Made by a program: the position numbers and the translations under genes | From: Nitratireductor luteus | GTDB lineage: Bacteria; Pseudomonadota; Alphaproteobacteria; Rhizobiales; Rhizobiaceae | Direction of reading: 5' to 3' | DNA length: 64,000 nt | Assembly (NCBI RefSeq): GCF_026162365.1 | Contig: NZ_JAOANW010000001.1 | Location: 310,001 to 374,000, forward strand | The notes under the pieces: model-generated | Told to the model about the DNA's origin: nothing | Seen by the model: the letters and a program-made list of their open reading frames with translations, nothing else | Database searches by the model: none | Part shown: piece after piece, positions 3,788 through 10,501 of the stretch | How the letters are laid out: every line of letters starts with the position of its first letter | Numbering within the stretch: the first letter of the stretch is position 1

Positions 3788-3812
3788 AACGGCGGGAAGC
3801 GCAAAGCGTTCC
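3788..3812 (-). promoter_or_regulatory. Sigma-EcfG (RpoE2-type) promoter of the ku-ligD operon
   Basis: Read on the minus strand, the site is GGAAC, 16 bases, CGTT. This is an exact match to the alphaproteobacterial general-stress sigma consensus. The -10 box ends 22 bases before the start codon of the 80-residue gene at 3766, a normal leader length. It would drive the 80-residue gene, ku and ligD. Confidence 0.85.
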
Positions 3813-5422: not shown

Positions 5423-5447
5423 AACGCATGAGCGGCCTCGTTGTTCC
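5423..5447 (-). promoter_or_regulatory. Sigma-EcfG promoter of the yqjD-yqjE-dps operon
   Basis: On the minus strand the site reads GGAAC, 16 bases, CGTT, identical in layout to the sites at 3788-3812 and 8138-8162. The -10 element ends 29 bases upstream of the yqjD start codon. It predicts general-stress induction of yqjD, the YqjE-like gene, the 72-residue gene and dps. Confidence 0.87.
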
Positions 5448-5497
5448 CGGAAGGCGCGATGGCGCGTGTTCGGGAACCACCGAAAAACCCTTGCCGT

Positions 5498-8011
5498 TCA
5501 AATGATGTATCGATCCCACCCGCCATAATGCTCGGCGCTGCGTGAACCGCGCGGCAGGCTGAGAAGGATCAGCGCGATACCGGCAACGATACCGTTCGCG
5601 GAGCCGATTGCTCCTGCCCCATCAAGCAACCACGGTGCAACTATCAGCCACAGTCCAAAGGCAATGTTGATGAACCGCATTGGTCGCACGGCTTCGGCCA
5701 TGGCGATGACCGCCACGGTTATGACCAGCGCACCTACCAGATGATCGCTATGGGCATAGGGTTGCTGCGTACTCAGGATGAGCGGGGTCAGCATCAGCCA
5801 GATGCCGATTAGGCTCGATGCGACCAGCGTCCAAGGTACTGTCACGCCCCACGCCATATGGGCGATCATGGATCGCAAATCCGCGCCGTAGCCGGGCCGC
5901 TTGCTTTCGGTGGCGCCGGGCATGGCGCCGCCCATGAAGAAGGAGCGCCAGAAGGGCTGGCCCGCGCGGTGGCTGTGCAGGAGAAACTGGCCCATGGCCA
6001 CGAGTTCGTCGATCGCGAACGGTATCATGATGAGCATTGCCAGCGCGGCCAGCAGGCACAGCGTACAGTAGGTGCCGATCACGATGGGTTGGATGATGAT
6101 GAAGTAGATGCTGACCACGCCGAGCGGCACCACGACGATACCGAACAGGAGCACCATCCATGGCATGGTGCGCCACCGGCGGCTGCCGCCCATGACACCC
6201 ATCAGGATCTCGAACATGTAGGAGACGGCGCCGAGCCCACCATCGGCAATCGGCCAGGCCTGCGAGACATCGGAGGTGATGATTGTCTCGGATCCGTTCA
6301 TGCCCCCTTCGCCGCCAAAAAACGGCTCCCAAACAGCCCCCGCATGGCCCAGCTGATAGGCGGAGAGCTGGCGGGCGATGATGAAACCGACCACCCCAAG
6401 CGCTATGATCGGCAGACGCTGCAGATAGGTCGATGGCGAATAGGTCCAACCGGGCGGAACGTCGGCCTTCTGCATCATGCCTTCATGGCTCATGCCAGGC
6501 ATCATCGGGACGAGGATCGCGAAGGCTATGACGAGTGCGCCGACGATCGTGTCGTTGTTGTAGGCGGCAGCCGTCGGTGCCCACAGGATCAAGGGCGCGA
6601 ACAGCAGCCAGATGCCCACGAAGGCGGTTGCCCACGGCGCCCAGCTGAAACGTGGCTTGAGCGACAACGCCCCGAAGATGACGATCAGAACCCCGGCGGC
6701 GATGTCGCTGATGCCGATCAGCATGTTGCGTATTTCAGGAGACGGTAGACCGCGTTCCATCGTCACGTCACGCACGACATGCCGGGCCGTTTCCGGATCG
6801 AATAGGCCGAAGGCAAACGGGCTGCTCATCAACCACAGCCCAAATCCGATATTGAGAAAATGGGCCCACGAGTTTGCCAGATGCATCTGTCGCATCTCTT
6901 CCATATGCTCGTGCATCTCGTCCGCTGCGGGCGGCCTGTCGGCCTGCATACGGGCTGTGGCGACGCGCGCCTGGTTGAGGTTGTTGTGCCCATACCAGGC
7001 AGCAGGATCTTCCTTTAACGCTGTGATCATCCTGAAAAGCGTGTCGCGAAGCGATCGCCGCGGCTGCCAGTCGAGATGCTCTTGAGCACGGCCAATATCC
7101 AGTGCGTAATGATCGTCGGCAATATCGACCATCCAGGGCTTGATGAACGGCTCATCGCCCAGCACCTCCTCCTCGACCCAGGCGCCGGTCTTTGCCAGCG
7201 CTTTCGGAATCTTCCAGGTTCTCCATTCCTCCTCATGGACAAGACGGCCTATCGTCTGCTGCAGGTCGTCGTAGCTCATCACGTCCGGCTCGCCGAGCAG
7301 CAGCGGCAGTTCCTGCGGCAAGTTCTTGCGCCGCTCGATCAATTTCGAAAGCGCGTCGATCAGGTCGTCGAGATGCAGGAACGATTGCCCCGTCTTCAGG
7401 TCGGCCGGGTAGACATGGCTTCTTGGGCTGCGCTCATAGATGCGGGCGATCTGGTGGGCGAGGAAGGGATTGCTGCAGCGGTCGTCATATACGCCCGCCG
7501 GCCGCAAATAGACCACGGGAATCCCTCCCCGCAGGTCGTGAATCAGATGCTCGGTCTTGATCTTCGATGCCCGGTAGGGAAGTTTTGGGTCGAGTGTCTG
7601 GCTTTCGTCGATCCTCTGCCCCGGCTTGACAGCAGCGTGCGCAAGCATCGTGCCGGAGAAGATCAGCTGTTCAACCTCGAAATCCTGCAGCGCGCGCAGC
7701 AGGCGTTCAGTGCCTCGCACGGTGACGGCGTCATATTTGGGATCAGGCTCTCCGGTCAGGTCGAAATAGGCGGCCAAATGAATGACAGACGCGATGCGTG
7801 CGCCATGGGACTTGCGCACCTTGGCAAAAGCGGCCGCCACGCTCTCGTCCGAGGTCAGGTCCACATCGATGTGCTGTACGGACGCAGCCGGCTTGTCGGA
7901 ACCTGGCTGATCGAGGCCAACCACGGTATATTTCGACGAGAGCGCTTCAACCAGCGCGCTCCCGATGTAGCCGCTACTCCCCGTGACGATGACGACGTCT
8001 TTCCTGCTCAT
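5498..8011 (-). CDS. SDR epimerase-SPW-VKOR-like-SPW multidomain membrane protein
   Basis: This 837-residue fusion has four parts. Residues 1-340 are an extended SDR/NAD-epimerase domain, with VTGSSGYIGSAL at 9-20 and a YRASK catalytic pair. About 380-500 is a four-helix SPW-repeat region (GLWLMSSPFAFG). About 525-670 is a helical region resembling vitamin K epoxide reductase, with the CxxC motif CTLC at 649-652. About 715-830 is a second SPW-repeat region (FGLWLIVAPWLL). Canonical bacterial VKOR also carries a loop cysteine pair, but no other cysteine occurs in this part, so a full DsbB-like relay looks absent. A sigma-EcfG promoter lies about 127 bases upstream. The function is unknown; an envelope stress redox role is possible. 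Confidence 0.85.
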   Translation of the reverse strand: MSRKDVVIVTGSSGYIGSALVEALSSKYTVVGLDQPGSDKPAASVQHIDVDLTSDESVAAAFAKVRKSHGARIASVIHLAAYFDLTGEPDPKYDAVTVRGTERLLRALQDFEVEQLIFSGTMLAHAAVKPGQRIDESQTLDPKLPYRASKIKTEHLIHDLRGGIPVVYLRPAGVYDDRCSNPFLAHQIARIYERSPRSHVYPADLKTGQSFLHLDDLIDALSKLIERRKNLPQELPLLLGEPDVMSYDDLQQTIGRLVHEEEWRTWKIPKALAKTGAWVEEEVLGDEPFIKPWMVDIADDHYALDIGRAQEHLDWQPRRSLRDTLFRMITALKEDPAAWYGHNNLNQARVATARMQADRPPAADEMHEHMEEMRQMHLANSWAHFLNIGFGLWLMSSPFAFGLFDPETARHVVRDVTMERGLPSPEIRNMLIGISDIAAGVLIVIFGALSLKPRFSWAPWATAFVGIWLLFAPLILWAPTAAAYNNDTIVGALVIAFAILVPMMPGMSHEGMMQKADVPPGWTYSPSTYLQRLPIIALGVVGFIIARQLSAYQLGHAGAVWEPFFGGEGGMNGSETIITSDVSQAWPIADGGLGAVSYMFEILMGVMGGSRRWRTMPWMVLLFGIVVVPLGVVSIYFIIIQPIVIGTYCTLCLLAALAMLIMIPFAIDELVAMGQFLLHSHRAGQPFWRSFFMGGAMPGATESKRPGYGADLRSMIAHMAWGVTVPWTLVASSLIGIWLMLTPLILSTQQPYAHSDHLVGALVITVAVIAMAEAVRPMRFINIAFGLWLIVAPWLLDGAGAIGSANGIVAGIALILLSLPRGSRSAEHYGGWDRYII

Positions 8012-8137: not shown

Positions 8138-8162
8138 AACGACTCGGTCACTGAATAGTTCC
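8138..8162 (-). promoter_or_regulatory. Sigma-EcfG promoter upstream of the SDR-VKOR fusion gene
   Basis: On the minus strand the site is GGAAC, 16 bases, CGTT, a perfect consensus. It points toward the gene starting at 8011, leaving an untranslated leader of about 120 bases in which I find no convincing small ORF. The leader is longer than at the two sister promoters. Confidence 0.78.
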
Positions 8163-10078: not shown

Positions 10079-10501
10079 GTGTCACGCGGCCCCGGATCTG
10101 TTCCGAGCTTGCCCGGCTTCCCCGCCGATCGGCTTCCAGCCTGCATCAGGTGCAGCCTCGGCTCCCGGGACAACCGGGCGCGTGAGAACGTTTTGTGAGG
10201 CGTGCAGACTCATGTGCGCTCAACGATCTGACGGCCCTGCGGTTCCCACGCGGTCCCGCGTCATCACCCCTGGACATTCCGGCATGGCGGATGGCTCCGC
10301 CTTCCTCAGCCAGGCTCGTTGCGCATCGATGTCCCGGACCCCGCCCTTCGCGTTGTGCAATTGTTTTTCACGGCGGATTTCAAACCGACACCGTTAATGA
10401 ACTATTTCGATGAAGATTCCGTTCTTTTGGAATTTCTTACACAGCCCTTTAGTGGCTAAGAGGTATCAATATCGCAGAGCAGATAATAAAAAGGGCTTCT
10501 C
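10079..10501. other. Intergenic region of 423 bases
   Basis: This region separates the divergent acetyl-CoA hydrolase and lipoprotein genes. Base composition drops to AT-rich from about 10385. I see no RNA gene or convincing ORF. The last 60 bases hold the inverted repeat described separately. Confidence 0.6.
10443..10497 (+). promoter_or_regulatory. Leader inverted repeat that could mask the ribosome-binding site
   Basis: AGCCCTTT at 10443-10450 is the exact reverse complement of AAAGGGCT at 10490-10497, with 39 bases between. The right arm contains the only plausible Shine-Dalgarno sequence (AAGGG) for the ATG at 10502, so folding would occlude it. The effect on translation is an inference. 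Confidence 0.5.

What the first reader, a model, noticed from the sequence alone, without database searches (positions are those of the whole stretch)
5498..8011. SDR epimerase fused to SPW repeats and a VKOR-like CxxC domain
One 837-residue chain joins a cytosolic nucleotide-binding dehydrogenase/epimerase with two SPW membrane modules flanking a VKOR-like domain. The CTLC pair is present, but no second cysteine pair exists in the membrane half, so classical DsbB/VKOR electron relay is unlikely. NAD(P)-linked quinone or thiol chemistry is one speculative role.
Basis: partly seen in the sequence, partly recalled or inferred. Interest (0 to 1): 0.7.

Follow-up and report, generated by a model that had tools for sequence, protein, structure and literature searches.

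The report
Copper-linked VKOR-fold membrane fusion protein
One bacterial protein joins a sugar-epimerase-like enzyme to a membrane unit related to vitamin K epoxide reductase; it belongs to a genuine, patchily spread family of unknown function whose genes mostly lie among copper-resistance genes.

Summary
An 837-aa ORF lies at 5498-8011 on the MINUS strand: extended SDR, SPW, VKOR (534-666), SPW, with 12 predicted membrane helices, CTLC on the periplasmic side and no loop cysteine pair. It is not a frameshift: 77 of 80 fetched loci have it as one ORF. The VKOR-only model's six best PDB hits are all VKORs (weak E, 0.075 to 0.8).

New here: (1) The family sits in copper-resistance islands (30 of 40 loci; 6 of 40 same-genome controls). 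(2) Four haloarchaea, one Nitrospirota and one Stutzerimonas record hold the SPW-VKOR-SPW unit without the SDR, beside GH15 and a classical SDR, four of the six also beside a four-helix copper protein. (3) Copper-linked members carry Met/His-rich linkers; a 12-row Met-poor clade lacks them, and 1 of 12 has copper markers. (4) CxxC is missing in 13 of 100 rows, in three lineages; SDR catalytic residues are missing in 2 of 95. (5) The window's copy is copper-type in sequence but lies near Ku/LigD/Dps behind an EcfG-type promoter.

Best reading: a VKOR-fold, probably quinone-binding membrane factor of copper and general-stress tolerance. Its chemistry is unproven.

The parts
5498..8011 (-). The fusion gene, 837 aa (stop at 5498-5500)
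6983..8011 (-). Extended SDR (epimerase-like) domain, residues 1-343: TGSSGYIG, T121, Y146xxxK150, H213xxD216
   Evidence: Pfam Epimerase 7-230 and GDP_Man_Dehyd 8-326; Foldseek best hits are UDP-sugar epimerases and dehydratases; conservation
6860..6979 (-). Met/His-rich linker 1, residues 345-384 (9 Met+His of 40)
   Evidence: median 9 in Met-rich rows, 2 in Met-poor rows; copper binding is inferred
6482..6871 (-). SPW module 1, residues 381-510, four predicted helices
6473..6520 (-). Met-rich motif PMMPGMSHEGMM within residues 498-513, linker 2
   Evidence: copper binding is inferred
6014..6412 (-). VKOR domain, residues 534-666, four helices
   Evidence: Pfam VKOR 77.0 bits; Foldseek top six hits all VKOR
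6056..6067 (-). CTLC, residues 649-652, periplasmic end of membrane helix 8
   Evidence: hydropathy and positive-inside reading
5555..5830 (-). SPW module 2, residues 728-819, four predicted helices
   Evidence: Pfam SPW best stretch
8138..8162 (-). EcfG-type promoter-like site GGAAC-N16-CGTT, about 126 bases before the ATG
   Evidence: 5 matches in the window, mean 1.52 in shuffles, 0 of 100 shuffles reach 5. Match to a consensus only

Best explanation
It is a 12-helix inner-membrane protein whose core is SPW-VKOR-SPW, with a cytosolic NAD-type SDR fused in front, and it serves copper and general-stress tolerance. Shown: architecture, VKOR-like fold prediction, family-wide lack of the loop cysteine pair, copper-island context, Met/His-rich linkers in copper-linked members. 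Inferred, in order: (1) both linkers lie on the cytosolic face and bind Cu(I); (2) the VKOR bundle keeps the quinone site (the serine aligned with the VKOR serine is present in 100 of 100 rows) and exchanges electrons between the quinone pool and a periplasmic partner, through the CxxC where it is kept, as a direct one-pair exchange without the loop shuttle; (3) the SDR is a cytosolic nucleotide-dependent partner or sensor that some lineages do without. The window's copy is a copper-type member recruited to the EcfG general stress regulon, while the own-genome paralogue sits in a copper island. Odds by part: copper or stress tolerance role of the family 0.8; copper binding by the linkers 0.55; quinone-linked redox 0.4; all together as below.
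For: Copper markers within about 6 kb in 30 of 40 loci against 6 of 40 control stretches of the same genomes; two or more kinds in 25 against 1; 58 of all 80 loci. CueR-type dyads in the 80 loci: 18, against 0 or 1 in each of 5 shuffles. Annotated copper clusters in 7 of 8 plasmid records first looked at (the eighth, S. meliloti, not). Own paralogue beside multicopper oxidase, cupredoxin and CusF. Unfused relatives with GH15 and a classical SDR in four haloarchaea, one Nitrospirota and one Stutzerimonas record, 4 of 6 with a four-helix copper-binding protein. Met-rich rows 65 of 88 with copper markers, Met-poor 1 of 12. VKOR is the most conserved part, mean 0.82 against about 0.69-0.72 for SDR and SPW. 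Conserved S580 aligned with the serine of canonical VKORs. Stress context of the window: Ku, LigD, Dps, DUF883-like gene, EcfG-type sites.
Against: The window's own 64 kb hold no copper marker. 22 of 80 loci show none, some on short contigs. Markers were chosen from plasmid homologues, the 80 loci hold near-duplicates, and control stretches were picked by hand on the same contigs. Genes in metal islands can be passengers. CueR-type dyads do not lie before the fusion itself (1 of 73 with a relaxed pattern), and EcfG-type sites precede only 4 of 73. CxxC is absent in 13 of 100 rows although 8 of the 10 STPA rows still have copper markers, which weakens thiol chemistry. The Met-poor group is one clade, so its contrast is one evolutionary event. 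No activity, metal binding or localisation was measured, and a Cu-binding linker in the cytosol next to a periplasmic CxxC has no known coupling.
Confidence: 0.4

Rival explanations
1. Copper handling without thiol redox: the VKOR fold and SPW modules form a membrane copper carrier or copper sensor, loaded through the cytosolic Met/His linkers; CxxC and SDR are accessories.
For: CxxC lost in three lineages with the rest of the VKOR domain still conserved; SDR absent or degenerate in some copper-linked members; Met/His linkers go with copper context.
Against: CxxC is still kept in 87 of 100 rows including the haloarchaeal ones; no transporter family matched; no measured transport.
Confidence: 0.25
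2. Conventional thiol-quinone oxidoreductase (VKOR/DsbB-like) for periplasmic thiol proteins of copper clusters such as TlpA/DsbE, SCO, DsbA and CcdA; copper link is indirect.
For: CxxC at the periplasmic side; TlpA/DsbE-like genes in 20 of 80 loci and in 11 of 40 against 1 of 40 controls; SCO 7 of 40 against 0 of 40.
Against: Loop cysteine pair missing in 100 of 100 rows; 13 of 100 lack CxxC; does not explain Met/His linkers or GH15.
Confidence: 0.2
3. Sugar or lipid metabolism enzyme: SDR plus GH15 plus classical SDR act on a carbohydrate, the membrane part anchors them; copper islands carry it as a passenger or because the product chelates metal.
For: GH15 in 15 of 80 loci and classical SDR in 15 of 80, 0 of 40 controls each; trio kept in haloarchaea and Nitrospirota; SDR fold nearest to UDP-sugar epimerases.
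Against: GH15 is absent within the flanks of 65 of 80 loci; the VKOR region, not the SDR, is the most conserved part; fused SDR lost catalysis in the Cupriavidus-type lineage.
Confidence: 0.15

Closest known systems
VKOR family (PF07884), e.g. human VKORC1 and the pufferfish VKOR-like (6wvb)
   Same: Profile score above cut-off; predicted four-helix fold nearest to VKOR structures; CxxC at helix start and the conserved serine align with stand-alone VKORs
   Different: No loop cysteine pair in any of 100 rows; CxxC itself missing in 13; embedded between two SPW modules; no thioredoxin domain seen
SPW family (PF03779)
   Same: Two SPW modules per chain over the curated score. PMC8078820 (passages) already states that some SPW proteins also hold a VKOR or an epimerase domain
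   Different: That paper's passages give no function and do not mention copper; here all three are on one chain
Extended SDR, UDP-glucose 4-epimerase group (e.g. 4zrm, 7ys8)
   Same: Nucleotide motif, YxxxK and HxxD kept; structural hits
   Different: No SDR equivalog model reaches its cut-off among those listed; fused to a membrane half; substrate unknown
Gig system of Cupriavidus metallidurans (GigPABT)
   Same: Accessory copper-tolerance system with a membrane part; its authors suggested electrons from Cu(I) to the quinol pool (PMC10304878, passages)
   Different: GigT is DoxX-related; no epimerase or vitamin K term occurs in that paper; no homology claimed here

Membership tests
VKOR | Profile match over the curated cut-off | tested here: met
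   77.0 bits against 27.5; 38 of 38 members of A3 match
VKOR | Four-helix VKOR fold | tested here: met
   Model of residues 520-675: ranks 1-6 all VKOR, TMq 0.43-0.60; E-values only 0.075 to 0.80, none under 0.001. Sequence profile search of the PDB found no VKOR
VKOR | Active-site CxxC | tested here: met
   Present in the window protein; 87 of 100 rows
VKOR | Loop cysteine pair of the electron relay | tested here: not met
   0 of 100 rows have a cysteine in residues 552-587; three stand-alone VKORs (L141-L143) do
VKOR | Quinone or vitamin K reduction with thiols | not testable with these tools
   Needs enzyme assay
SPW | SPW profile match, two-helix repeats | tested here: met
   82.1 bits against 31.5, three stretches
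Extended SDR | TGxxGxxG, catalytic Thr/Ser, YxxxK | tested here: met
   All in the window protein; YxxxK in 93 of 95 fused rows
Extended SDR | NDP-sugar epimerase activity | not testable with these tools
   Only fold similarity
Copper-resistance accessory proteins | Location in copper clusters above background | tested here: met
   30 of 40 against 6 of 40, for the family; the window copy itself has none in 64 kb
Copper-resistance accessory proteins | Copper phenotype on deletion | not testable with these tools
   No experiment

The most novel reading that the evidence does not exclude
An ancient SPW-VKOR-SPW membrane unit, shared by haloarchaea, Nitrospirota and Proteobacteria, uses the VKOR fold to handle copper with the quinone pool or copper itself as partner and does not depend on thiol chemistry: Met/His linkers load it, CxxC and SDR are lineage options. 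That would be the first copper role of the VKOR fold known to me (my recall plus the ten listed paper searches).
Probability: 0.25. Interest if true: 0.85.

Novelty: new variant of a known kind. Interest (0 to 1): 0.62.

Why it matters
VKOR and DsbB are textbook disulfide-quinone enzymes defined by two cysteine pairs. Here is a conserved VKOR-fold family that lacks one pair throughout and has lost the other in three lineages, yet keeps the rest of the domain and sits in mobile copper-resistance islands in two domains of life. If the copper role is right, a gene that annotation calls epimerase or vitamin K epoxide reductase is an uncharacterised copper-tolerance factor, and natural CxxC-less and SDR-less members make the mechanism directly testable.

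Tried and rejected
Frameshift merger: rejected. Direct CueR control of the fusion: not supported, 1 of 73 upstream regions with a relaxed pattern, background 0.25, although dyads occur elsewhere in the islands. EcfG control as a family trait: not supported, 4 of 73, one of them in a non-alphaproteobacterium; it is claimed for the window only. Adjacent classical SDR as the unfused form of the fused SDR: not supported, best blastp E 0.002 over 79 residues. Viral relatives: 29 pattern stretches, no relative. PDB sequence searches with the VKOR region: no VKOR hit. Paper searches for the fusion or its copper link: ten. The nearest were PMC8078820 (SPW domain partners) and PMC6803676, whose passages mention a hypothetical VKOR in a Sulfobacillus plasmid-like region; its abstract, seen in the search listing, says the region carries metal-resistance genes. 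Its architecture was not checked. One search added a stray row and was not used. The linker Met counts printed are wrong for many rows because the pattern missed them; one search replaces them. A coordinate slip failed and was redone.

Full report
What is there. The ORF at 5498-8011 is on the minus strand, 837 aa. Pfam gives Epimerase 7-230 (88.8 bits), VKOR 534-666 (77.0) and SPW (82.1, three stretches), all over cut-off. A hydropathy scan gives 12 peaks in the membrane half plus one at 6-24 that is the SDR nucleotide-binding element. Counting from a cytosolic SDR and following the positive charges puts CTLC 649-652 at the periplasmic end of helix 8 and both inter-domain linkers on the cytosolic side (inference from sequence). 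The full-chain model has mean pLDDT 84.5 and pTM 0.57. Foldseek finds UDP-sugar epimerases and dehydratases for the SDR. For the VKOR region alone (mean pLDDT 77.7) ranks 1 to 6 are all VKOR structures, TMq 0.43-0.60, E 0.075-0.80. The E-values are weak; the agreement of the ranks and of the Pfam score carries the assignment.

Is it real and how common. In genome contigs 514 of 531 pattern stretches encode relatives, of which the best 80 were kept; 77 of 80 have one ORF over at least 760 query residues, and L064, L067 and L023 do not. Random samples show that it is rare: 5 of 385 genomes of the class and 6 of 398 of the phylum, own genome counted in both, every listed place in an open frame of 831-903 aa. 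Pfam VKOR occurs in 13 of 151 genomes of the family, 13 of 14 places in frames of 833 aa or more, and in 4 of 299 of the phylum. In 43 genomes holding fetched loci, 60 of 63 VKOR places lie in frames of 525 aa or more.

Cysteines and active sites. Over 100 aligned rows (95 fused, 5 unfused) no row has a cysteine in the loop 552-587, where stand-alone VKORs L141-L143 have theirs. S580, S583, D590, Y598 and R614 are present in 100 of 100. CxxC is in 87 and absent in 13: STPA in 10, STLA in L093 and L151, ATLT in L157. On a FastTree tree of the membrane half, without the CxxC columns, the fewest changes are 4, in three lineages, one of which also holds a CxxC row (L068). The tree warns of long branches, L157 among them. 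On the narrower set of 76 the count was 1. Since haloarchaeal and Nitrospirota rows have CTLC, loss is the likelier direction (inference). The SDR keeps YxxxK in 93 of 95 fused rows; L094 and L159, one lineage, lack it, with SDR identity to the window of 32-33% against 78% for their VKOR. So neither CxxC nor SDR catalysis is universally needed, while the VKOR core is the most conserved part, 0.82 against 0.69-0.72 (76 rows).

Copper context. The first eight plasmid records looked at show copper or heavy-metal clusters in seven, with CueR, Cu-ATPases, CusABC-type pumps, multicopper oxidases, SCO, PCuAC, DUF411, DUF305 or CopK; S. meliloti pSymB is the exception. With marker proteins taken from these records, 58 of 80 genome loci have at least one marker. 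Against hand-picked stretches of the same genomes it is 30 of 40 against 6 of 40 (Fisher p 9.5e-8), and 25 against 1 with two or more kinds. Near-duplicate loci inflate the significance. Neighbour clusters in the 80 loci: CueR/MerR 30, TlpA/DsbE 19, CusA 18, a CBS-like protein (label by eye) 16, GH15 15, DUF411 14, multicopper oxidase 14, Cu-ATPase 13 (tblastn counts differ, e.g. DUF411 25). CueR-type dyads: 18 in the 80 loci against 0 or 1 in each of five shuffles, but not before the fusion itself.

The core without the SDR. Haladaptatus, Haloprofundus, Natrinema, Halocatena, Ca. Manganitrophus and Stutzerimonas records hold the SPW-VKOR-SPW unit as a separate protein beside GH15 and a classical SDR. 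All three genes are on one strand in five of six; in Stutzerimonas GH15 is opposite. A four-helix copper-binding protein is annotated in four of six, copper resistance B and Cu-type ATPases in Manganitrophus, none of these in Halocatena. Identity of the membrane half to the window is 42-50% for the haloarchaeal and Manganitrophus proteins and 54% for Stutzerimonas. The neighbouring SDR is not the fused one split off. The same GH15 and classical SDR accompany the fusion in the own-genome paralogue and in six other loci drawn out in order; 15 of 80 loci have each, 0 of 40 controls.

Met/His linkers. Residues 345-384 and 498-524 are rich in Met and His in most rows, up to runs such as repeated His in L093 and L094. 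Split by Met count in 498-524: 88 Met-rich rows, 65 with a copper marker in their context; 12 Met-poor rows, 1 with a marker (CusA in L164's context). The Met-poor rows are one clade, so this is one contrast, and two of its rows are identical over the membrane columns of that tree. Two of them lie directly beside Ku and LigD and one beside a relative of the window's acetyl-CoA hydrolase-like gene. A copper-binding function of the linkers is inferred.

The window copy. It has the Met motif and sequence of the copper-linked group, but no marker within 64 kb. Around it on the same strand are an AcetylCoA_hyd_C protein, a DUF883-like gene, a small membrane protein and a Dps/ferritin-like gene, then genes that I recognise by sequence as Ku and LigD (not run through Pfam here). 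GGAAC-N15..17-CGTT occurs 5 times in the window against a mean of 1.52, 0 of 100 shuffles reaching 5; four are on the minus strand, at 3788, 5423, 8138 and 10222. PMC6599016 (passages) gives GGAAC-N17-20-GTT as the EcfG motif of Sphingomonas melonis and lists a Ku gene in its EcfG table. The window copy is therefore probably a general-stress member (inference from consensus matches).

Literature. Ten searches gave no paper on this fusion in copper tolerance. PMC8078820 (passages) states that some SPW proteins also contain VKOR or epimerase domains, so the domain pairing is not new. PMC6803676 (passages) mentions a hypothetical VKOR in a Sulfobacillus plasmid-like region whose metal resistance its abstract names. 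PMC10304878 (passages) offers an analogous idea for the unrelated Gig system. PMC4555120 (passages) has no epimerase, SPW or fusion term. PMC2864759, PMC8478169 and PMC3616915 were searched by term only. The library holds open-licence papers only.

Verdict. A real, conserved and mostly copper-associated family in which a VKOR-fold domain works without the loop cysteines and sometimes without any. Mechanism open; interest moderate to high.

Noticed in passing
L145, L146, L147, L150 (haloarchaea), L149 (Ca. Manganitrophus), L175 (Stutzerimonas): SPW-VKOR-SPW as a separate protein beside GH15 and a classical SDR, often with a four-helix copper-binding protein.
   Followed up: partly
   Followed up: partly
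window 3788-3812, 5423-5447, 8138-8162, 10222-10246 (-), 5473-5498 (+): Five EcfG-type promoter-like sites around the Ku/LigD/Dps/DUF883/fusion/acetyl-CoA hydrolase stretch.
   Followed up: partly
L140 (G183:C8): A stand-alone VKOR-like frame that also lacks loop cysteines but keeps CxxC.
   Followed up: no
L094, L159: Cupriavidus-type members whose fused SDR lacks the nucleotide motif and YxxxK, a probable pseudo-enzyme.
   Followed up: partly
G000:C24:13082-13363 (L003): A separate 158-aa frame with an SPW match of 99.4 bits in the own genome.
   Followed up: no
L096 (Paraburkholderia fungorum pBIL), L023, L067, L144: Copies whose reading frame is interrupted; the Paraburkholderia record annotates only the VKOR end.
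   Followed up: no
80 genome loci, cluster seen in 16: A CBS-like protein (label by eye) is a frequent neighbour of the fusion.
   Followed up: no
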